From assembly GCF_000183725.1 (NCBI RefSeq), contig NC_014762.1:248001-312000 (forward strand): a stretch of DNA of 64,000 nt, given 5' to 3'. This stretch comes from Sulfuricurvum kujiense DSM 16994. GTDB taxonomy: Bacteria; Campylobacterota; Campylobacteria; Campylobacterales; Sulfurimonadaceae. How positions within the stretch are numbered: position 1 is the stretch's first letter; each line of letters begins with the position of its first letter. Both the position numbers and the translations under genes were made by a program. The notes beneath the pieces were generated by a model, which saw only the letters and a list, made by a program, of their open reading frames with translations, searched no databases and had not been told where the DNA came from. Positions 10,233 through 60,454 of the stretch are shown piece by piece.

Positions 10233-12488
10233 ATGATCAATTTTACGATTAACGGCCAGCCCGTCATAGCAAACAAAGGGGAGACGATTCTCCAAGCGGC
10301 ACGGAAAGCGGGATTCTATATCCCGACGATGTGTTATTTGGAAAAAACGACTCCGTGTGCATCATGCCGATTATGTGTGGTAGAGACCGACAAAACGGAC
10401 GGCTTGATTCTCAGCTGCCAAACTCCGCCGACCGAAGGGTTGGCGGTAGTGATCGATTCGGATCGTCTCAAGACTGAGCGAACGAACATTATGCGTCTTT
10501 ACGATGTTAATCATCCGTTAGAGTGCGGTGTGTGCGATAAATCGGGTGCATGCGACCTACAAAACAAAACGTTGGAGTTCGGTGTCTCTTCTCAGCATTT
10601 CAGTGCAAAAGATCAGCATCGTAAAATCGAGCACTGGGGACTGATCAACTACGATCCGTCTCTTTGTATTTTGTGTGAAAAATGTGTCCATGTCTGTAAC
10701 GAAATCATCGGTGATGACGCGATCGAATTGCAATTCGGCGGGTACAAATCATCGGTTATTCCGAAAAACAGCGATGCACTCGATTGTACGTTCTGCGGCG
10801 AATGTATCGCGGTATGTCCTGTGGGTGCGTTGGTAAGCTCAAACTTTCAGTACAGTGCCAATGCATGGGAACTTAGCCAGATCCCTGCAACCTGTGTTCA
10901 TTGTTCGGCAGGATGTTCATTGATGTACGAAGTGCGCCACACGTCAAACTTGACAGGCGCCAAAGATAAAATCTACCGTGTCACAAATGATTTCGAGCAT
11001 ACGACACTGTGCGGAGCGGGACGATTCGGATTCGATTTCAACGTAGAGGGAACCAAAGACGAAGCACAATTCGCTAAAGCGGTTGATGCGATCAAAAATG
11101 CGGACGCTATCCGTTTTAGTTCATTGATCACCAATGAAGAGGCGATGATCCTTCAAAGCCTCAAAGAGAAATTGGGTCTAAAACTTTACAATGAAGAGGC
11201 GCGTGCGTATCAAAACTTTATGAACGCATATGCATCGATCAGTGGAAAAACCGGTTTCGGCGGAAGTTTGGATGCGATTAAACAAAGCGACGGTATCATC
11301 GTTTTCGGCGGGCGTGTAACGACCGACAATCCTATGGTTCGTTATGCAATGACGACGGCTGCCCGCCATAACGGTGCGAAAGTCGTCTATATGCATCCGA
11401 TCGAAGACGATCTTCTTCAAAATGTCGTGACGCAGTACGTCAAATACGAAGTGGGTACCGAAGAGGGTGTTGTTGCGATGCTTGCAAAAACGCTTCTGGA
11501 AAATGCGGATGTAAGCGATGAAACACGCCATTTTTTCGAAGGTCTTGACGAAGGGTATCTATGCGCCGAGAGTAATATCGGTGATGAAGAGTATGCCCGT
11601 ATGGCCAAAACGTTTGCGAGAGCCAAACGCAAAACATTGGTGATCGGAAGCGACGTCCTCACTCATAAACGCGCAGCGAATATTTCCCGTTTGTGCGCAA
11701 TGATCGAAACCTATACGGAGTTTTCGGTTGTTGTAATCGCACCGAGTGTCAATACGATCGGTGTTTCATTGATCTGTGATCTGGATGCTGACAACAACGG
11801 CGAAAATGTTGTCGGATACAATGCGGCGGGTTCGTATACCATGGGCTCATTTGATGAAGCGATGTTGAAATTGCCGTCTCTTAACTCTCAGGAGGGGACA
11901 TTCGTCAGTATCAATCACCAAGTGCTTCCGACCAATGTTGCAGTCGCATTCGATGGGTATACGTTAAACGATTTGGCAAATGCTCTTGGACTATCGGCTC
12001 ACAATACGATCGACTATACCGCACAGCTTCCGGAATCAAAAGGGTTTAACGGATCATCGTTTGATGATTTGGGGAATTTTTACAGTGCATTGGGCGAAGA
12101 TAACCGCGGGTATGTCCTAGAAAATCGCGATGTAGAAGCTGACGGGAAACTAGAAGAGATTGATGATTTACCTGAGTTCAACGGTACGGTCGTATACCGC
12201 TGCAACCCGGTCAATCAGTTTAATACCTACACGGCTCGAACCGAACAGCTCGAAAAAGAGGCAATATTGCGCGGTTCGGCACAGTTTGCCGCTGCCGCAA
12301 AAATCGGTGATGGTGATAAAATTCGCATTGAATTTCCTCACAGCACCCAAGAGCGGATTTTTAAACTCGATTCTGCGATGAAAGGGACCATTGCATTGGT
12401 TCCGGCATACGATGTCGGATTCGGCGGTTTAAATGAGCAATACCGTTTTGAAAAGGTGAAAATTATGAGGATGGGGAGCGAATCATGA
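10233..12488 (+). CDS. nuoG: NADH-quinone oxidoreductase subunit G, first copy
   Basis: A 751-residue iron-sulfur subunit of the complex I electron-input arm. In order it shows an N-terminal [2Fe-2S] domain (CYLEKTTPCASCRLC), the His-Cys cluster motif HPLECGVCDKSGAC for N5, two ferredoxin motifs (CILCEKCVHVC and CTFCGECIAVCPVGAL), an N7-type CVHCSAGC with a later LCGAGRFG cysteine, and a molybdopterin-oxidoreductase-like C-terminal domain without obvious cofactor residues. A near-ideal AAGGAGGG (10221-10228) precedes the ATG at 10233. A second, similar nuoG follows with an ATGA overlap, so this is one half of a tandem duplication. Confidence 0.94.
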   Translation: MINFTINGQPVIANKGETILQAARKAGFYIPTMCYLEKTTPCASCRLCVVETDKTDGLILSCQTPPTEGLAVVIDSDRLKTERTNIMRLYDVNHPLECGVCDKSGACDLQNKTLEFGVSSQHFSAKDQHRKIEHWGLINYDPSLCILCEKCVHVCNEIIGDDAIELQFGGYKSSVIPKNSDALDCTFCGECIAVCPVGALVSSNFQYSANAWELSQIPATCVHCSAGCSLMYEVRHTSNLTGAKDKIYRVTNDFEHTTLCGAGRFGFDFNVEGTKDEAQFAKAVDAIKNADAIRFSSLITNEEAMILQSLKEKLGLKLYNEEARAYQNFMNAYASISGKTGFGGSLDAIKQSDGIIVFGGRVTTDNPMVRYAMTTAARHNGAKVVYMHPIEDDLLQNVVTQYVKYEVGTEEGVVAMLAKTLLENADVSDETRHFFEGLDEGYLCAESNIGDEEYARMAKTFARAKRKTLVIGSDVLTHKRAANISRLCAMIETYTEFSVVVIAPSVNTIGVSLICDLDADNNGENVVGYNAAGSYTMGSFDEAMLKLPSLNSQEGTFVSINHQVLPTNVAVAFDGYTLNDLANALGLSAHNTIDYTAQLPESKGFNGSSFDDLGNFYSALGEDNRGYVLENRDVEADGKLEEIDDLPEFNGTVVYRCNPVNQFNTYTARTEQLEKEAILRGSAQFAAAAKIGDGDKIRIEFPHSTQERIFKLDSAMKGTIALVPAYDVGFGGLNEQYRFEKVKIMRMGSES

Positions 12489-14971
12489 ACGAAATCACGA
12501 TTACCATAGACGGCCGCACTGTCCAGACGCAAGAGGGTGAATATATCCTTAATGCGGCACGGGCAAACGGGATATTTATCCCGGCGATCTGTTATTTGAC
12601 ACGATGTTCGCCGACACTGGCATGTCGTATTTGTTTGGTCGAAGCAGACGGCAAACAGGTCTATGCGTGTAATGCAAAAGCAAAAGAGGGGATGGAGATT
12701 ACGACAACGACTCCGAATATCCTCGAAGAACGCAGAGCGATTATGGAAGTTTACGACGTAAACCATCCTCTAGAGTGCGGTGTCTGTGACCAGTCAGGTG
12801 AATGCGAACTTCAAAATTACACCTTAGAAGTCGGCGTAGACTCACAAAACTATGCGATTAAAGATACCCACAAACCGGCGCAGGATTGGGGATTGATTCA
12901 CTACGATCCGGCACTGTGTATCATGTGTGAACGTTGTATTACCGTATGTAAAGATATGATCGGTGATGCGGCTCTCAGCACGGTTGCGCGCGGCAGTGAT
13001 GCGATTCACGGCGAATACAAAGCGATGATGCCGAAAGACGCCTATGCGATGTGGAACAAACTTAACAAATCGCTGATCGCTCCAAACGGCGGGGACACAC
13101 TCGATTGTACCAACTGCGGTGAATGTACGTCGGTATGTCCGGTCGGTGCGTTGGTGAGCAGTGATTATCAATACACTTCCAATGCATGGGAGCACAAACA
13201 AATCCCTGCAACGTGTGCCCACTGTTCTGCGGGATGTCAGCTCAGCTACGATATCAAACACACCAGTATCAGCAATCCGGAATCTAAAATCTACCGTGTC
13301 AAAAACGAGTGGAACTATGTATCACTGTGCGGTGCAGGACGCTACGGGTACGATTTCGAAAATCGTGATGTGAGCAAAGACAAAGCGGCATTCGATAAAG
13401 CGATCGAAGCGTTTAAAAAAGCCGATACGATTGCCTTTACCTCTACCATTACCAACGAAGAAGCAATGATTCTTCAACGTCTCAAAGAGAAATACGGATA
13501 TCGCCTGGTGAACAGCGAAGCATTGGCGTTGAAAAACTTTTTGGGCAGTTACAGTGCAATCAGTAAGACATCACTTTACGGCGGCGATTTGAAACAGGTT
13601 CATGAAGCCGACTTCGTCGTATCCATCGGAAGTGCTCTTAAAACCGATAACCCGAATGCACGTTTTGCGATGAACAATGCACTGAGCATGAATAAAGGCT
13701 CAGGGCTTTATTTCCATCCGATCAACGATCCGGTGATTCAAGATATGTCTAAAAACATTACCCAGTTCAATCACGCTCCGATGATGGAAGAGGCGGCATT
13801 GTATTTGATGCTGGATCTTTTCGGTGACAAAGCGGCAATGCCGTCAGCCGTTACGGAGTATTTGGCAGGGTTCCATTCGACCAAAACCGTAACGATCGAA
13901 GAGAGCGTTGATGAAAAAGTGACTGAAACGGTAACGAAAAAAGTGCTTAACGAAGAGACCGGTGTTGAGGAAGAGGTAAGCGAAGAAGTTACCAAAACAA
14001 TCAAGAAAAAAGTTTCCAAAGAGGTTGAAGTCGATGACAATGCCCTTTTCGGGCTTTTGAACGCGCCGGAAAAATTCGCTGAGACCTTGGAAAAATATTT
14101 GGCGAAAAAAGAAAAATTCGCCCTTATGGTCGGACCGGATCTTTATACCCATCCGAATGCGGCAAACTGCGCCCGTCTCGTCGCATTGATCGAAAAATAC
14201 ACTCCGTTCAGTGTTACAATGATTCCGAATCTTGCAAATACATTGGGTGCGGCGTTGATTTGTGATCTGGATTCGTCGCGCGGAAGCTATACCATCGGCT
14301 ATAACACACGCGGTGATTTCACCCTTAGCGCATTAGGGAACGGCGATTTGGATATGCCGGCTCTGAACCAGCAGGAAGGGACATTGACCGGCATCGACAA
14401 GCGGGTTAATCCGACCAATGCGGCACTCGGCTACGGCGGATACGTACTCAATGATATCGCCAATGCATTGGGCATAACTGCGAAGTATACCGTTGATTAT
14501 ACGGCACAGCTTCCGGTGAAAAACGGATTTAAAGCACTCTCTTTTGATACATTGCCGAACTATTACACCAATGCCGGTGAAGAAGTCCGCGGGTATGTAT
14601 TGGAAAACATTGCCGTAAACAGCGGGGGCGATGAGAGTGTTCAACCGTTGAATCCAAATGCGGCCATTCGTGAGAATGTGGTCTATTTGGCAAATCCGGT
14701 GTTGCAGTTTTCCGCGTTTACGGCAGCATCGCATCAACTTAACGCAAAAGGTGGTTTATACGCTTCGCATACGGCGATGCAGACGAACGGCTGGAGCGAA
14801 GGGGATGCATTGCGTGTTAAAACAGCACATGGCGAGCTGAGTGTCAATGTAATAGCTGACGGTAAGATCGGAGGAGATATTACATATCTCCCGACATTCG
14901 ATACCGCTATCAACTCTGAAGCACTGTTTGACGGTTACCGTTTTGCGTGCGTATCAATTCAAAAGGTGTAA
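12485..14971 (+). CDS. nuoG: NADH-quinone oxidoreductase subunit G, second copy
   Basis: An 828-residue paralogue of the preceding gene with the same cluster complement: CYLTRCSPTLACRIC for [2Fe-2S], HPLECGVCDQSGEC for N5, CIMCERCITVC and CTNCGECTSVCPVGAL ferredoxin motifs, and CAHCSAGC plus SLCGAGRYG for N7. Relative to the first copy it has an insertion between the second and third ferredoxin-like segments and a Val/Thr/Glu/Lys-rich stretch at about residues 467-517 inside the molybdopterin-like domain. All cluster ligands are kept in both copies, so both could carry electrons, either in two complex variants or in series. Starts at 12485 inside the previous stop (ATGA). Confidence 0.94.
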   Translation: MNEITITIDGRTVQTQEGEYILNAARANGIFIPAICYLTRCSPTLACRICLVEADGKQVYACNAKAKEGMEITTTTPNILEERRAIMEVYDVNHPLECGVCDQSGECELQNYTLEVGVDSQNYAIKDTHKPAQDWGLIHYDPALCIMCERCITVCKDMIGDAALSTVARGSDAIHGEYKAMMPKDAYAMWNKLNKSLIAPNGGDTLDCTNCGECTSVCPVGALVSSDYQYTSNAWEHKQIPATCAHCSAGCQLSYDIKHTSISNPESKIYRVKNEWNYVSLCGAGRYGYDFENRDVSKDKAAFDKAIEAFKKADTIAFTSTITNEEAMILQRLKEKYGYRLVNSEALALKNFLGSYSAISKTSLYGGDLKQVHEADFVVSIGSALKTDNPNARFAMNNALSMNKGSGLYFHPINDPVIQDMSKNITQFNHAPMMEEAALYLMLDLFGDKAAMPSAVTEYLAGFHSTKTVTIEESVDEKVTETVTKKVLNEETGVEEEVSEEVTKTIKKKVSKEVEVDDNALFGLLNAPEKFAETLEKYLAKKEKFALMVGPDLYTHPNAANCARLVALIEKYTPFSVTMIPNLANTLGAALICDLDSSRGSYTIGYNTRGDFTLSALGNGDLDMPALNQQEGTLTGIDKRVNPTNAALGYGGYVLNDIANALGITAKYTVDYTAQLPVKNGFKALSFDTLPNYYTNAGEEVRGYVLENIAVNSGGDESVQPLNPNAAIRENVVYLANPVLQFSAFTAASHQLNAKGGLYASHTAMQTNGWSEGDALRVKTAHGELSVNVIADGKIGGDITYLPTFDTAINSEALFDGYRFACVSIQKV

Positions 14972-33406: not shown

Positions 33407-33656
33407 ATATACTTTTCTTATGAAAAAGAAAAGTATGCAAAAGAAAATCGCCCTCTCAACAAAACGCTTCCAATCGCTTTGGCACTTCTGCCAGCGATTG
33501 GGCTCTATGTGAGTTTCGGGGGCATATTTATTGAATAAAGAATTCCGTGATCCAACACCAAGAGCCGTTCCGGAGGCAGTAGTGCCGAGAGGAACGAGCG
33601 TTCTTGGATCACGGTATGTTCTTTTGGTACTTTTCTGGCTAAATAGAAAAGTATAT
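33407..33656. repeat. Structured intergenic repeat, copy A
   Basis: A 250 bp element present again in inverted orientation at 36831-37073 with only scattered differences. Its ends form a perfect 12-base terminal inverted repeat ATATACTTTTCT (33407-33418 and 33645-33656). Inside lie a TACTTTTCTT/AAGAAAAGTA hairpin at the left end, an outer stem GCCCTC/GGGGGC enclosing CAATCGCT/AGCGATTG and GGCA-CTTC-TGCC, a stem CCGTGATCCAA/TTGGATCACGG enclosing CGTTCC/GGAACG and GGCA-GTAG-TGCC, and a terminal TACTTTTCT/AGAAAAGTA hairpin. Located between the convergent ends of fabI and the lipoprotein gene. Frames across it are not credible genes. Confidence 0.85.
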
Positions 33657-33670
33657 TGTGTTACGAAACG

Positions 33671-34210
33671 TTACTTGCCGATAACCGGCATACCATTTAT
33701 TTTTTCGATATGAGACGGCTCTTTCGGTTTTCCCTCATTCATCTTCTCTTTCTTTTCCAAATAGGATTTCCATTTATCGGCGTATTTTTGCAGGGTAAAC
33801 GGCGTATTGTCTTCATCCAGAGGGACAACTTCGGTTTTAGTTGTGACGGTGCCGTCGGGAGCTTTCATGGTAGTCGTAATCTGTGTGGCGTTTGTCATTT
33901 TTTGAACCGTTTTACCGTCGGAAGTTTGTGTGGTAACAGACATTTTAGTCGGTTCGGTTTTGGTCGTTATCACTGTGCCGTCGCTTTGTTGCTTGGTATT
34001 CACCGTAGGTTCGTTTGCCATCATAGGGTTCCACTCCTCTTTGAGCCAGATGTCGAGAGAACGCTGCATTATTCCCCCTTCACTGGCGGCGGTAGTGCTG
34101 GGAGAGACGGCTTGCAGATTTGTGTTTTGTGACGGCGTTACTCCCATATGATTGGCGGCACAGCCGCTGAGTATCAACAGGGCAATGGATAAGCTAAGAG
34201 AATGGCGCAT
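33671..34210 (-). CDS. Hypothetical lipoprotein
   Basis: A 179-residue protein with a lipoprotein signal peptide ending in the lipobox LILSGC (Cys17). The mature part is Thr/Lys-rich, with imperfect repeats of the form DGTVITTKTE, DGKTVQKMTN and DGTVTTKTEV that suggest short beta-hairpin units, then a helical C-terminus (KYADKWKSYLEKKEKMNEG). No known domain recognised. GAGGAAAT precedes the ATG. Divergent from the porin gene, with a candidate minus-strand -10 TATAGT at 34253-34258. It lies inside the interval bounded by the inverted repeats. Confidence 0.75.
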   Translation of the reverse strand: MRHSLSLSIALLILSGCAANHMGVTPSQNTNLQAVSPSTTAASEGGIMQRSLDIWLKEEWNPMMANEPTVNTKQQSDGTVITTKTEPTKMSVTTQTSDGKTVQKMTNATQITTTMKAPDGTVTTKTEVVPLDEDNTPFTLQKYADKWKSYLEKKEKMNEGKPKEPSHIEKINGMPVIGK

Positions 34211-34304
34211 GGTATTTCCTCTATTAAGGTTGAATTTTTCAGATTAGTTCGTACTATAACATAGAATTTACATGATAGTGTCTAAAAATAGGTGAGTATT
34301 AAAA

Positions 34305-34320
34305 GTGACAAAATTGTCAC
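34305..34320. promoter_or_regulatory. Operator-like palindrome upstream of the porin gene
   Basis: GTGACAA (34305-34311) and TTGTCAC (34314-34320) form a perfect seven-base inverted repeat around AA. Position and symmetry suit a dimeric regulator, perhaps of the CRP/FNR type; the regulator is not identified. Confidence 0.4.
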
Positions 34321-34387
34321 ATTCCCTAATTAAGGGGTTTGCATTTAGTAAACGGACAGAAAACAAAATTATTTTTTTACAGCATTG

Positions 34388-34410
34388 TTTAAGAATAGCG
34401 GGGTTACAAT
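34388..34410 (+). promoter_or_regulatory. Candidate promoter of the porin gene
   Basis: TTTAAG at 34388-34393 and TACAAT at 34405-34410 resemble the extended, -35-less promoters of Campylobacterota. A leader of about 45 bases ending in TTAAGGAGAATCA precedes the ATG at 34461. Confidence 0.4.
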
Positions 34411-34460
34411 TAACCTCGACGAAACAAAAACATAGGTCAAGCTTAACTTAAGGAGAATCA

Positions 34461-35801
34461 ATGAAGTTAGTTAAAATGAGTCTTGCAGCAGCAGTGTTGC
34501 TCGGAGCGAGCGCATTCGCAATCGATAATGTAAAAGTTAGCGGTGATGCTAAACTTTATTACAACACAAACAATGCTGATTATCTAGATGGCAGTGGTAA
34601 TAAACAAAGTGGTCTGTTTGACAAAGCAGCAAGTGCAGCGGATACAGCTCTTACTCTTGGTGTAACAGGTGATTTGACAAAAGGTGTCTCTTTCGGCGTT
34701 AAAGGTATTGCTGTTAGTACTCTTGGTCTTGAAAACAACCTTGTAAGCAACACATGGACAGGTGCACATGATGCGAAAGCAAACGGTTCATCTTTTGGTG
34801 CTCAAGTTGATGACCAAGCATGGATCAGTGAAATGTGGGTTGCTGCAACTCTTGGGAAAACTACGGCAAAACTTGGACGCATGGAGCTAGATACTCCATT
34901 TGCTTTCTCTGAAAAATGGTCTATCGCGACAAACACATTTGACGCAGCGGTTCTTATCAACCAAGACATCCCTGATACAACTCTAGTAGGTGCATGGGTA
35001 GGAAAAGGAAATGGTGTTAATGCTATTGGAGCATACTCATTGAATGGTGTTCCTAGCAACACTCCTGCTGTTGGAATCGATGGTATCGTAGGTGCTGGTG
35101 CAAACTTCGATACATTTGCTAGTGACGGCGCGTATGCAGCAGCATTGGTAAACAACTCTTTCAAACCTCTTACATTCCAAGCATGGTACTACAACGTTGT
35201 TGACGTTGCTGATACTTACTGGTTGCAAGCAGACATCGATTGCCAATTGGTTAAAGGTGTAAAAATCGGTGCACAATATGCAAATATGTCACCAAAAGGT
35301 AACATTGAATCAACATTGGATGGAATCGGATCAAACGATAATTCATCTGCATATGCATTCAAACTTGGATATGAAGGTGTTCAAAATCTAAAAGTTTCTG
35401 CTGCATATTCAAAAGCAGATTCAGACGGTGTATTGAAAATTGCTAACGTTGCAACAAATAACCTTGGTGCTGCTCAATCTAAATTGTACACTGAAGCATG
35501 GTGGAACTACGGATACGTTGGTGCTCCGGATGCTCGTTCTTGGAACGTAACGGCTGAGTACGATGCAGGTCTTGCTAAACTTGGCGCATACTATACAGAT
35601 GTATCAATCGATGATACGAATGTGGTCAACCAAGCGGTTGGTGGAAAAGACAATGTCGATATGAAAGAAATTGCAGTTACTGCAACTAAATCGTTCGGAC
35701 CGTTGGATGCGACTTTGGCTTATATCTCTACAGATGCTGACGATCAAAATACCGGTGATCGTTACGACACTGTACAAGCTTACTTGACTCTTAACTTCTA
35801 A
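34461..35801 (+). CDS. Major outer membrane porin (OprD-like family of Campylobacterota)
   Basis: A 446-residue beta-barrel protein. The signal peptide is about 21 residues (ending GASAFA), the mature protein starts IDNVKVSGDAKLYYNT, and it ends in LTLNF with the C-terminal Phe recognised by the BAM machine. Alternating strands and turn motifs such as KLGRMELDTPFAFSEKW match the major porins of Sulfurimonas and relatives. Codon choice differs from its neighbours (many GGT, GCA, ACA and AAC), consistent with very high expression. Its own promoter and operator-like palindrome lie in the 250-base gap upstream. Confidence 0.85.
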   Translation: MKLVKMSLAAAVLLGASAFAIDNVKVSGDAKLYYNTNNADYLDGSGNKQSGLFDKAASAADTALTLGVTGDLTKGVSFGVKGIAVSTLGLENNLVSNTWTGAHDAKANGSSFGAQVDDQAWISEMWVAATLGKTTAKLGRMELDTPFAFSEKWSIATNTFDAAVLINQDIPDTTLVGAWVGKGNGVNAIGAYSLNGVPSNTPAVGIDGIVGAGANFDTFASDGAYAAALVNNSFKPLTFQAWYYNVVDVADTYWLQADIDCQLVKGVKIGAQYANMSPKGNIESTLDGIGSNDNSSAYAFKLGYEGVQNLKVSAAYSKADSDGVLKIANVATNNLGAAQSKLYTEAWWNYGYVGAPDARSWNVTAEYDAGLAKLGAYYTDVSIDDTNVVNQAVGGKDNVDMKEIAVTATKSFGPLDATLAYISTDADDQNTGDRYDTVQAYLTLNF

Positions 35802-35817
35802 GAGTTTTTTTTGCTTC

Positions 35818-35835
35818 TCACCCTCTCGGGGGTGA
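35818..35835. terminator. Weak hairpin after the porin gene
   Basis: TCACCC (35818-35823) pairs with GGGTGA (35830-35835) across six bases, preceded by a T8 run at 35805-35812. The T-run is on the wrong side for a classical terminator of the porin message, so the assignment is tentative. Confidence 0.3.
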
Positions 35836-35862
35836 ACCCTTCTTGTATCTTTCCCTCTTTCG

Positions 35863-35868
35863 CTATAA
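35863..35868 (+). promoter_or_regulatory. Candidate -10 of the permease gene, leaderless arrangement
   Basis: TATAAT ends only seven bases before the ATG at 35876 and no Shine-Dalgarno sequence is present, as at miaA. Confidence 0.4.
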
Positions 35869-35875
35869 TCATTTT

Positions 35876-36829
35876 ATGAAATATTTTTTCCATTCATTGC
35901 TCTATACGTTTTTAATGCTGTTCTTGATCTCTGTTCTCTCCTTCGGGGCAATCCATATGGCACCCAACAGTTTTATGGGTGGTGAACTGAATCCCAATAT
36001 GACCCCTGAAGCTATCTCGCAGCTGCGTGCGGTTTACGGATTGGATAAGCCTCTGCTGAAGCAATACGCCGATTGGGTAGACAATTTGGTTACCCTCAAC
36101 TTCGGTATTTCATTCGTCAGCGGAGCGCAAGTCTCTAATGTAGTAGCCGATAGACTGCCTGTGACCTTGTGGATGAATATGATTGCTTTGACTTTGACAT
36201 TTGTTCTCTCATTAGGGATGGGGATTAAAGCGGCACTCTCGTATGGTAAGAAAACGGATACGATTATCAGCCAATTTTCACTGCTCAGTTTTGCTATGCC
36301 ATCGTATTATCTGGCTTTGGTAGCGATGATGGTTCTTAGCGTAGCGTTAGGATGGTTTCCGATTGCTGGGATACATTCGCTCGAACCGCCGGAGGGAATA
36401 GGGTATTATAGTGATATGGCGTGGCATTTGACACTGCCGATTGCAGTTATGGTTTTTGTCGGGGTGGGGAGTTTAGCCCTTTATATCCGCTCTTTGACGA
36501 TTGAAATCCTCAAAAGTGACTATATCTATTTTGCCCGTTCGCGGGGAATCGGAGAAGGTAAAATAATCCGCTATTACATACTTCCCAATCTTCTTCCTCC
36601 CATTGTAACGATGTTGGGTTTATCGTTGCCTGGCCTTATCGGCGGATCGGTGATACTTGAATCGATTTTCGGAATTGAGGGGATGGGGCAGCTGTTTTAT
36701 CTGAGTGCAATGAGTCGGGACTATCCGGTGATAATGGGGATTTTGATGATGAGTGCATTTTTGGCGCTTATCGGCAATCAGATTGCCGATGCGGTACTAT
36801 TGAAGTTAAATCCGTTTGTGAAGCGATAA
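35876..36829 (+). CDS. ABC transporter permease, DppB/OppB family
   Basis: A 317-residue inner membrane permease with about six helices. The N-terminal MKYFFHSLLYTFLMLFLISV helix, the periplasmic MTPEAISQLRAVYGLDKPLL motif and the cytoplasmic EAA loop near YFARSRGIGEGKIIRYYILP identify the dipeptide/oligopeptide/nickel permease family. No second permease, ATPases or binding protein lie nearby, so its partners must be encoded elsewhere. The ATG at 35876 is chosen since a TTG or ATG further up (35843) would overlap the -10 box. Confidence 0.88.
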   Translation: MKYFFHSLLYTFLMLFLISVLSFGAIHMAPNSFMGGELNPNMTPEAISQLRAVYGLDKPLLKQYADWVDNLVTLNFGISFVSGAQVSNVVADRLPVTLWMNMIALTLTFVLSLGMGIKAALSYGKKTDTIISQFSLLSFAMPSYYLALVAMMVLSVALGWFPIAGIHSLEPPEGIGYYSDMAWHLTLPIAVMVFVGVGSLALYIRSLTIEILKSDYIYFARSRGIGEGKIIRYYILPNLLPPIVTMLGLSLPGLIGGSVILESIFGIEGMGQLFYLSAMSRDYPVIMGILMMSAFLALIGNQIADAVLLKLNPFVKR

Positions 36830-36830
36830 T

Positions 36831-37073
36831 GTACTTTTCTCTTTGTGCTAGAAAAGTACCAAAAGAGCATACCGTGACCCAAGAACGCTCGTTTCTTCCG
36901 GCACTGCTGCCTTCGAAACGGCTCTAGGTATTGGATCACGGGAATTTTATTAAATAATGCCCCCGAAACTCACATATAGCCCAATCGCTGGCAGAAGTGC
37001 CAAAGCGATTGAAAGCGTTTTGTTGAGGGGGCGATTTTCTTTTGTTTCTTTTCTTGTGAAAAAGAAAAGAAAG
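36831..37073. repeat. Structured intergenic repeat, copy B (inverted relative to copy A)
   Basis: The reverse complement matches copy A along its whole length. Stems are preserved through paired changes: CGTTCC/GGAACG of copy A is CGTTTC/GAAACG here, the left-end TAC.../...GTA pair is TTTC.../...GAAA here, and the outer stem is a perfect GCCCCC/GGGGGC. The end nearest nusA carries TTTCTTTTCTT (37045-37055) and AAGAAAAGAAA (37062-37072). Lies between the convergent ends of the permease and nusA genes, where it could terminate both messages. Confidence 0.85.
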
Positions 37074-37114
37074 AGAGTATTTGATATTTAGGAATGGAAA
37101 AAGTCCGGAAAGGA

Positions 37115-38248
37115 CTAGTTTCCAAAAAGCGCTTCGAGCGAGCTAAGCCCCTCTTTTTTCTCTTCCTGAGCTTTTTCACCCATTTGAGCGCTTCCGCCCA
37201 CTTCATTCAGCTCGATTGTATATCCTGTTAGCATTGATGCTAAACGGATGTTGATACCGCTTTTCCCGATTGCTTTGGATTTTTGGTCGCTTGGGAGGGT
37301 AACAACCGCTTTTTTCTCTTCGCCTTCATTTTCAGTTACGACAACGGCACTGATAATGGCAGGAGACATCGCACGGGAGATGAAAAGTTCGGGAGACGAA
37401 CTGTATTCGACACAGTCGATGTTTTCACCGCACAGCTCTTCGCTTACCGCGTTGATACGGACACCGCGTACCCCGACGGTTGCACCGATCGGATCGATTT
37501 GAGGTCGGTTGGTGTAGAGGGCGATTTTCGCACGCTCACCCGGAATACGGGCGCATTTTTCGATAACGACGATGCCGTCTTTGATCTCAGGAACTTCCAA
37601 TGCCAAAAGCTCTTCGAGAAATTTCGGAGCGGTTCGTGAGAGCTCCATCGAAATACCGTTGCTTTTGTCAACGTGGACACGGCGAACGATGGCACTCACA
37701 ACATCGCCGACTTTGAATTTTTCACCTTTGATACGGCTTTTCATCGGCAATACCGCACGGATCTCATCAATTTCGATGGTGGTATTTTGGTCGCTGTCTA
37801 CACGGGTAACGCGGCCGGATACGATTTGATTGATTTTACTTTTGTATTTGTCGTAAAGCTCGTTTTCAACAAGGCGCTGGATATGAAATTCGATTTCTCG
37901 GTGCAAGGTGGCAAACGCGCTTCGTCCGTAGCTTTCGATGTCGTGTTCCATTTGGAGCTGATCGCCGATTTCCGCTTCGTCATCGATTTCCAATGCTGCG
38001 GTAATACCCATATACGCGCCCGCCTCTTCACCCTCAAGTTCCGGAGCATCGTCGGCAACGACGGTAATGATTTGTCGTAGCCTAACCTGTTTGGTACGAT
38101 CGTCAATATCAGCTTCAAAAGCAAAAGTTGGATTAATTATTCGTTTGGCGGTTTGGATAAACGAGGTTTTAATCGCCTCTTGAACACGATCCGGATTAAG
38201 CCCTTTTTCGTTTGCGATAGATTCAATAATATCTAAAATATTTTCCAC
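37115..38248 (-). CDS. nusA: Transcription termination/antitermination protein NusA
   Basis: A 377-residue NusA with the N-terminal RNA polymerase-binding domain, an S1 domain around residues 135-205 (IVSGRVTRVDSDQNTTIEID), and two KH domains with GATVGVRGVRINAVSEEL and AIGKSGINIRLASMLTGY. It lacks the C-terminal acidic repeats of E. coli NusA, as in other Campylobacterota. GTG start at 38248 after GAGGAT. Upstream on the minus strand TATAAT is found at 38326-38331. Confidence 0.95.
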   Translation of the reverse strand: MENILDIIESIANEKGLNPDRVQEAIKTSFIQTAKRIINPTFAFEADIDDRTKQVRLRQIITVVADDAPELEGEEAGAYMGITAALEIDDEAEIGDQLQMEHDIESYGRSAFATLHREIEFHIQRLVENELYDKYKSKINQIVSGRVTRVDSDQNTTIEIDEIRAVLPMKSRIKGEKFKVGDVVSAIVRRVHVDKSNGISMELSRTAPKFLEELLALEVPEIKDGIVVIEKCARIPGERAKIALYTNRPQIDPIGATVGVRGVRINAVSEELCGENIDCVEYSSSPELFISRAMSPAIISAVVVTENEGEEKKAVVTLPSDQKSKAIGKSGINIRLASMLTGYTIELNEVGGSAQMGEKAQEEKKEGLSSLEALFGN

Positions 38249-60344: not shown

Positions 60345-60454
60345 TAGGTCTTCGCAACACACAAAGAGTGAGGTCGCCCGCAGAAGTGCGAAGGCGTACC
60401 GATAGCGATTTGTTGCGGAGACGATTTTCTTTTCTTATGAAAAAGAAAAGAAAG
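60345..60454. repeat. Structured intergenic repeat, copy C (diverged, shorter)
   Basis: Related to copies A and B by the conserved core GCAGAAGTGC and by the end TTTTCTTTTCTT (60425-60436) with AAGAAAAGAAA (60443-60453). The outer stem is GTCTTCGCAACA (60348-60359) with TGTTGCGGAGAC (60411-60422), one wobble pair. The inner hairpin reads CGCC-CGCA-GAAG-TGCG-AA-GGCG, where copy B has CGCT-GGCA-GAAG-TGCC-AA-AGCG, so two pairs change in step. The CCGTGATCC half of A and B is missing. Sits between the convergent ends of recG and hpf. Confidence 0.75.

What the first reader, a model, noticed from the sequence alone, without database searches (positions are those of the whole stretch)
33407..37073. 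Inverted pair of a 250 bp multi-hairpin element with covarying stems
Copies A (33407-33656) and B (36831-37073) match as reverse complements over nearly their full length. Differences fall so that pairing is kept: CGTTCC/GGAACG against CGTTTC/GAAACG, and the left-end stem TAC/GTA against TTC/GAA. TTGGATCACGG becomes TTGGGTCACGG, which still pairs as a G-T wobble. Loops vary while stems stay. Such covariation points to selection on a folded RNA or cruciform, not on primary sequence. I know no named element with this design. Copy A also has a perfect 12-base terminal inverted repeat, so a MITE origin is possible.
Basis: seen in the sequence. Interest (0 to 1): 0.75.

Follow-up and report, generated by a model that had tools for sequence, protein, structure and literature searches.

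The report
Repeated two-hairpin element at gene ends
The two copies belong to a family of small repeated DNA elements, scattered at the ends of genes in this sulfur-bacterium genus and a few relatives, whose folded shape is conserved while its sequence changes; they most likely spread as passenger mobile DNA and act, when transcribed, as two-way transcription stops.

Summary
Copies A and B are two of 26 loci (38 half-units) in this genome. Each full element is two unlike ~115-nt half-units (alpha, beta) placed head to head. Each half-unit has an outer hairpin (TACTTTTCT...AGAAAAGTA), an A/T-tract (CAAAAGAAnAT) and a long stem whose sequence varies but stays paired. In 139 half-units from the genus the stem covaries far above controls, including a tree-based null. 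Orthologous sites in other species are empty, or hold alpha alone, beta alone, a full copy, a remnant, or unrelated hairpins, and some halves have opposite orientation. So the family turns over and is modular. 64 of 122 elements lie between convergent genes and 2 between divergent ones. Non-Watson-Crick pairs are wobbles mainly on the outward strand, where the stem is followed by a U-rich tract; part of that bias may be mutational. Best reading: a non-autonomous, MITE-like family whose halves work as outward terminator-like RNA hairpins. Not shown: transcription, termination, mobiliser, target duplication. RAYT transposases are an unlikely mobiliser. The outer motif recurs in many phyla, there sometimes next to Rfam TwoAYGGAY RNA. 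No Rfam family and no paper found names it.

The parts
33407..33656 (.). Copy A, full element (beta half left, alpha half right), between fabI (+, stop 33400) and a lipoprotein gene (-, stop 33671)
33409..33436 (-). Copy A, outer hairpin P1 of the beta half
   Evidence: exact coordinates; structure
33438..33449 (-). Copy A, linker CAAAAGAAAATC; on the - strand the U-rich tail after the beta stem
33449..33523 (-). Copy A, beta long stem-loop (S1/S2/tip GCACTTCTGC)
33545..33614 (+). Copy A, alpha long stem-loop (CCGTGATCCAA...TTGGATCACGG)
33615..33626 (+). Copy A, alpha U-rich tail TATGTTCTTTTG
33627..33654 (+). Copy A, outer hairpin P1 of the alpha half
36831..37073 (.). Copy B, full element (alpha half left, beta half right), between an ABC permease gene (+, stop 36829) and nusA (-, stop 37115)
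36831..36859 (-). Copy B, outer hairpin P1 of the alpha half
36872..36941 (-). Copy B, alpha long stem-loop
36959..37032 (+). Copy B, beta long stem-loop (GCCCCC...GGGGGC)
37033..37044 (+). Copy B, U-rich tail GATTTTCTTTTG after the beta stem
37045..37072 (+). Copy B, outer hairpin P1 of the beta half
60347..60453 (+). Copy C, single beta half-unit (linker largely lost)
   Evidence: (L028)

Best explanation
A and B belong to a family of non-autonomous, MITE-like repeats made of ~115-nt half-units. When neighbouring genes are transcribed into it, each half folds as an outward-facing, terminator-like RNA: a long covarying stem, a U-rich tract, then the outer hairpin P1. Two unlike halves head to head (alpha plus beta) give a block with one such hairpin facing out on each strand, so the element sits mostly between convergent genes and just after stop codons. 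Shown here: the repeat family, half-unit modularity, covariation, presence/absence turnover at orthologous sites, and gene-end location. Inferred: RNA rather than DNA as the selected form, terminator-like or 3'-end-protecting activity, and spread by an unidentified mobiliser that recognises the terminal P1 hairpins.
For: 38 half-units in the genome; hits in 35 of the 41 genus genomes searched, own included, at 1-38 per genome. Covariation in 139 half-units: 90.7% of cells paired vs 34-49% when slid by 1-3 columns, 763 double-change cells vs 261 in shuffles, all 11 S1 pairs with changes on both sides. Sequence-only alignment of 27 own-genome units agrees. Tree-based null: 10 of 31 structure pairs significant vs 1 other column pair. 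Wobble asymmetry: 68 A.C vs 21 G.U events on the P1-to-S1 strand, i.e. G.U on the outward strand. U-rich tract on the outward strand conserved. Context: 64 convergent, 56 codirectional, 2 divergent. Orthologous sites: 0-12 bp gap, alpha only, beta only, full copy, or other hairpins.
Against: No transcript or termination data. In codirectional gaps single halves show no orientation bias (20 vs 22), so a strictly one-way terminator is not supported; each half would have to work in both directions. nusA has a simple terminator-like hairpin of its own at 37102-37116, so copy B is not needed there. The alpha U-tract starts about 5 nt after the stem. The simple terminator scan did not flag A or B. 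The wobble bias may be partly mutational: unpaired columns show G>A at 2.2 times C>T; against that background the excess remains (p 0.0005 for all helices, 0.009 for S1-S3). No target-site duplication and no mobiliser found.
Confidence: 0.55

Rival explanations
1. Selfish DNA only: the fold matters as single-stranded DNA or cruciform recognised by a transposase during mobilisation. The gene-end location only reflects loss of insertions that damage promoters or genes.
For: Turnover and modularity at orthologous sites; sequence-conserved terminal hairpins P1; near absence from divergent gaps is also expected from purifying selection; no orientation bias in codirectional gaps.
Against: Wobble bias is strand-specific, whereas a cruciform uses both strands; convergent gaps strongly over-represented against 7 of 53 gene pairs in the window; RAYT, the known recogniser of such DNA hairpins, is missing from copy-rich genomes.
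Confidence: 0.25
2. Covariation by mutation rather than selection: imperfect palindromes are corrected by template switching during replication, which makes compensatory changes without any function.
For: The elements are long quasi-palindromes in DNA; remnants with the stem cleanly lost (G014, G001, G027) show that stem-associated replication errors occur here.
Against: Does not explain the conserved loops and internal motifs (ACGC, GCTCT, GCACTnCTGC), conserved P1 and U-tract, strand bias of the wobbles or gene-end location.
Confidence: 0.1
3. The element makes a discrete trans-acting small RNA (as the Xanthomonas sRNA-Xcc1 family does).
For: The outer motif occurs in other phyla next to TwoAYGGAY RNA and a Burkholderia sRNA candidate.
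Against: No promoter-like site within A or B apart from one weak match at 33432-33459 (promoter-like sites in that region are fewer than in shuffles); two dissimilar halves facing outwards; different stem sequences across copies.
Confidence: 0.07

Closest known systems
REP/REPIN elements mobilised by RAYT transposases (PMC3733652, PMC3116915)
   Same: Intergenic repeated palindromes, often downstream of genes, occurring singly or as inverted pairs, many plausibly transcribed.
   Different: Half-unit is ~115 nt with two stem-loops rather than 20-40 nt; no conserved GTAG or CGTC tag; 22 of 41 genus genomes have no Y1_Tnp match, copy-rich ones among them. In this genome the three RAYT genes sit among other palindromes (GGTGCCTGACACC, GGGGTCAGACCCC).
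MITEs (non-autonomous transposon derivatives)
   Same: Short, non-coding, terminal inverted repeats, several copies, presence/absence between species.
   Different: The terminal repeat is itself a closed hairpin at each end; halves occur alone; no target-site duplication or parent transposon found.
TwoAYGGAY RNA (RF01731; PMC2864571) and Burkholderia sRNA Bp1_684 (RF02421)
   Same: In other phyla the same outer motif (ACTTTTCTTT...AAGAAAAGT..AAAAGAA) lies at the edge of loci that match these families.
   Different: A, B and C match neither family; the tip here is GCACTnCTGC, not AYGGAY; a stem after the linker is not enriched over controls in the other phyla.
Bidirectional intrinsic terminators between convergent genes
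   Same: A-tract, stem, U-tract layout and location.
   Different: Repeated in the genome, sequence-conserved outer hairpin, long branched stem with conserved internal loop and tip.

Membership tests
REP/REPIN with RAYT | 20-40 bp palindrome with GTAG or CGTC tag at one end | tested here: not met
   Half-unit alignments A2/A3 show a ~115-nt unit and no conserved tag; definition from PMC3733652
REP/REPIN with RAYT | Associated Y1 tyrosine transposase in the genome or next to copies | tested here: not met
   PF01797 absent from 22 of 41 genus genomes including G035 (19 hits), G015 (16), G012, G013, G017, while the elements are present there; no copies at the RAYT cluster L034
REP/REPIN with RAYT | Two units in inverted orientation | tested here: met
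   39 full head-to-head elements among 131 examined; the rest single halves
MITE | Terminal inverted repeats, short, non-coding, multicopy | tested here: met
   12-base TIR in A, 26 loci, intergenic
MITE | Target-site duplication | tested here: inconclusive
   Empty and filled orthologous sites are too diverged to define a duplication
MITE | Related autonomous transposon | tested here: inconclusive
   No [half - gene - half] arrangement seen among the hits of the own genome, but no systematic transposase search was made beyond PF01797
TwoAYGGAY RNA RF01731 | Match at the Rfam gathering score; two AYGGAY loops | tested here: not met
Bidirectional intrinsic terminator | GC-rich stem followed by a U-tract on the transcribed strand | tested here: met
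   Sequence and conservation; weaker for the alpha half (5-nt spacer)
Bidirectional intrinsic terminator | Measured termination | not testable with these tools
   No RNA data available

The most novel reading that the evidence does not exclude
The P1-plus-linker motif marks one very widespread, unnamed superfamily of mobile, structured terminal RNA elements in many bacterial phyla (Campylobacterota, Proteobacteria, Bacteroidota, Negativicutes, Clostridia and others). The alpha/beta repeats described here and the TwoAYGGAY/sRNA-Xcc1-like RNAs would be different cargo hairpins in the same outward-terminating frame, spread by a common unknown mobiliser.
Probability: 0.2. Interest if true: 0.8.

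Novelty: new variant of a known kind. Interest (0 to 1): 0.52.

Why it matters
It gives a family with clear, testable structure in which a mobile repeat supplies convergent genes with terminator-like hairpins. Orthologous sites occupied in turn by unrelated hairpins make turnover of gene-end structures directly visible. The near-identical outer motif in many phyla, next to orphan Rfam RNAs, offers a handle on RNAs such as TwoAYGGAY whose role is unknown.

Tried and rejected
RAYT mobilisation: rejected as a general mobiliser. Integron-like arrays in a related genus: the tight clusters in G249/G343 looked array-like, but the loci read show ordinary genes between copies and no array organisation was found (impression from ORFs, no integrase search). 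Shared long stem across phyla after the linker: not enriched (7.5 vs 9.0 bases paired). Recent local duplication as the cause of neighbouring copies: neighbouring alpha halves are not more alike than distant ones; the beta halves of A and B, 97% alike, are an exception seen. Plasmids and phages: no match. Papers holding the motif strings: none. Target-site duplication: inconclusive.

Full report
Observation. Copies A and B are present as described. Both fold much better than dinucleotide shuffles (z -8.7 and -7.4), and A also on its other strand (z -8.1). Rfam has no match at its gathering scores in the 64-kb window other than a tRNA, and nothing credible at relaxed thresholds over A.

Anatomy. 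BLAST with A gives 33 matches in the own genome, about 10 of them full length. Aligning these shows that every full element is two unlike half-units, alpha and beta, in inverted orientation. Reading inward, a half-unit is: outer hairpin P1 (TACTTTTCT-loop-AGAAAAGTA), linker CAAAAGAAnAT, long stem S1, motif ACGC, stem S2, tip GCACTnCTGC, S2', motif GCTCTnGGT, S1'. S1 and S2 differ widely between copies (for example CCGTGATCCAA, GCCCCCTCAA, GCCCTCACACC, GCCGCTCAAAC), whereas P1, linker, internal motifs and tip are conserved. Most full elements are one alpha with one beta; beta-beta elements occur as well, mostly in other species.

Covariation. On a sequence-only alignment of 27 own-genome half-units, 87.5% of cells pair, against 39-48% with slid partners. 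A covariance model (R1) collected 139 half-units from the genus. There 90.7% of cells pair, all 11 S1 pairs show changes on both sides, and 763 cells carry double changes against 261 in shuffles. Among 5995 column pairs ranked by background-corrected G statistic, 13 of the top 14 are structure pairs. My own R-scape-like null, which re-places substitutions along the tree, leaves 10 structure pairs and one other pair significant; the other one extends P1. Caveats: A3 is fitted to the model, the null is my own implementation, and with only the 27 own-genome sequences a single pair is significant.

RNA or DNA. A structure used as DNA on both strands should show A.C and G.T mismatches equally. On the P1-to-S1 strand, A.C exceeds G.U 68 to 21 in parsimony events (p 6e-7), so the wobbles lie on the opposite, outward strand. 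That strand reads stem, then U-rich tract (TTCTTTTG), then P1. A mutational strand bias exists in unpaired columns; measured against it, the excess remains (p 0.0005 overall, 0.009 for S1-S3). I take this as moderate support for an RNA read outward.

Context. With a simple home-made gene caller (checked against the ORF list), 64 of 122 elements with both neighbours called lie between convergent genes, 56 in codirectional gaps and 2 in divergent gaps. In the window, 7 of 53 neighbouring gene pairs are convergent (a small baseline, and some of the 122 are orthologous sites, so the printed p-value is too optimistic). Elements often start a few bases from a stop codon. Single halves in codirectional gaps point either way equally (20 vs 22), so each half would have to act in both directions, which its A-tract/stem/U-tract layout allows.

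Turnover. At the fabI-lipoprotein site most relatives have 3-24 bp or an unrelated hairpin; G000 has a full copy, G035 an alpha, G012 and G025 a beta. At the permease-nusA site, gaps of 0-9 bp occur in G026, G038, G023, G032, G007, G040 and G034; alpha alone in G011 and G009; beta alone in G019, G029, G002 and G013; full copies in G000, G017, G010, G024 and G035; only P1 in G001 and G027. The alpha of G011 and G009 has the orientation opposite to the alpha of G000 and G017, so one cannot derive from the other by simple loss. On a tree of fabI, nusA and permease genes the states are scattered. Species lacking the element but with a longer gap usually carry another stable hairpin.

Distribution. 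In the genus, 35 of 41 genomes have hits, own included; outside it, 1 of 39 weakly. A sample of 298 genomes of the phylum adds two further genera with many copies (g37, same family; g58, same order) and weak hits in two more. In the own chromosome copies are clustered: 9 gaps below 8.3 kb against 2.0 expected (p 0.0001), and a 1.0-Mb stretch (1.10-2.10 Mb) without any. There are none on the other contigs.

Mobiliser. Three RAYT-type Y1 transposase genes exist in the genome, but among other palindromes, and 22 of 41 genus genomes, copy-rich ones included, have none. No other candidate was found. Target duplications could not be defined.

Wider link. The exact P1-linker pattern was found in 120 stretches before the scan hit its limit, in many phyla. 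Some lie beside Rfam TwoAYGGAY or a Burkholderia sRNA candidate, and RTCCNY hairpin loops follow the motif in 35 of 110 cases against 12 of 220 controls. A common long stem was not detectable there, so homology beyond the motif is unproven. No paper in the held library contains the motif strings.

Conclusion. A real, apparently undescribed, modular repeat family with strongly conserved RNA-like structure at gene ends. It works like a mobile bidirectional terminator (inferred) and is MITE-like in distribution. It is not a REP/RAYT member by the tests made.

Noticed in passing
perm-nusA site of G025, G036, G005 (L109, L117, L118) and fabI-lip site of G011, G026 (L070, L074): A second ~100-nt structured repeat, with a GAAGAGAACTTAGCGTTAGCGTAGCC-like core, occupies the same convergent sites in other species.
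   Followed up: no
L104 (G012) and L112 (G016), remnant in L116 (G008): At the permease-nusA site a small ORF (it reads like a GIY-YIG-type protein; no family search made) is flanked by ATTCCCGC...GCGGGAAT palindromes, a possible separate mobile unit.
   Followed up: no
L034:3472-7225 (own genome C4:2.124 Mb): Three RAYT-like genes, one apparently truncated, lie among GGTGCCTGACACC and GGGGTCAGACCCC palindromes and duplicated segments.
   Followed up: partly
L342, L343, L344, L349 (genus g37: G249, G343): Copies in that genus are locally clustered, and often one P1 hairpin is flanked by a stem on each side, a different arrangement of the same modules.
   Followed up: partly
own chromosome C4, 1.10-2.10 Mb: A megabase without any copy; 15 of 17 clusters lie within 0.5 Mb of coordinate 0. 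Cause unknown.
   Followed up: partly
window 10967-11039 and 13285-13357: A 73-nt direct repeat at 75% identity, probably paralogous coding sequence.
   Followed up: no
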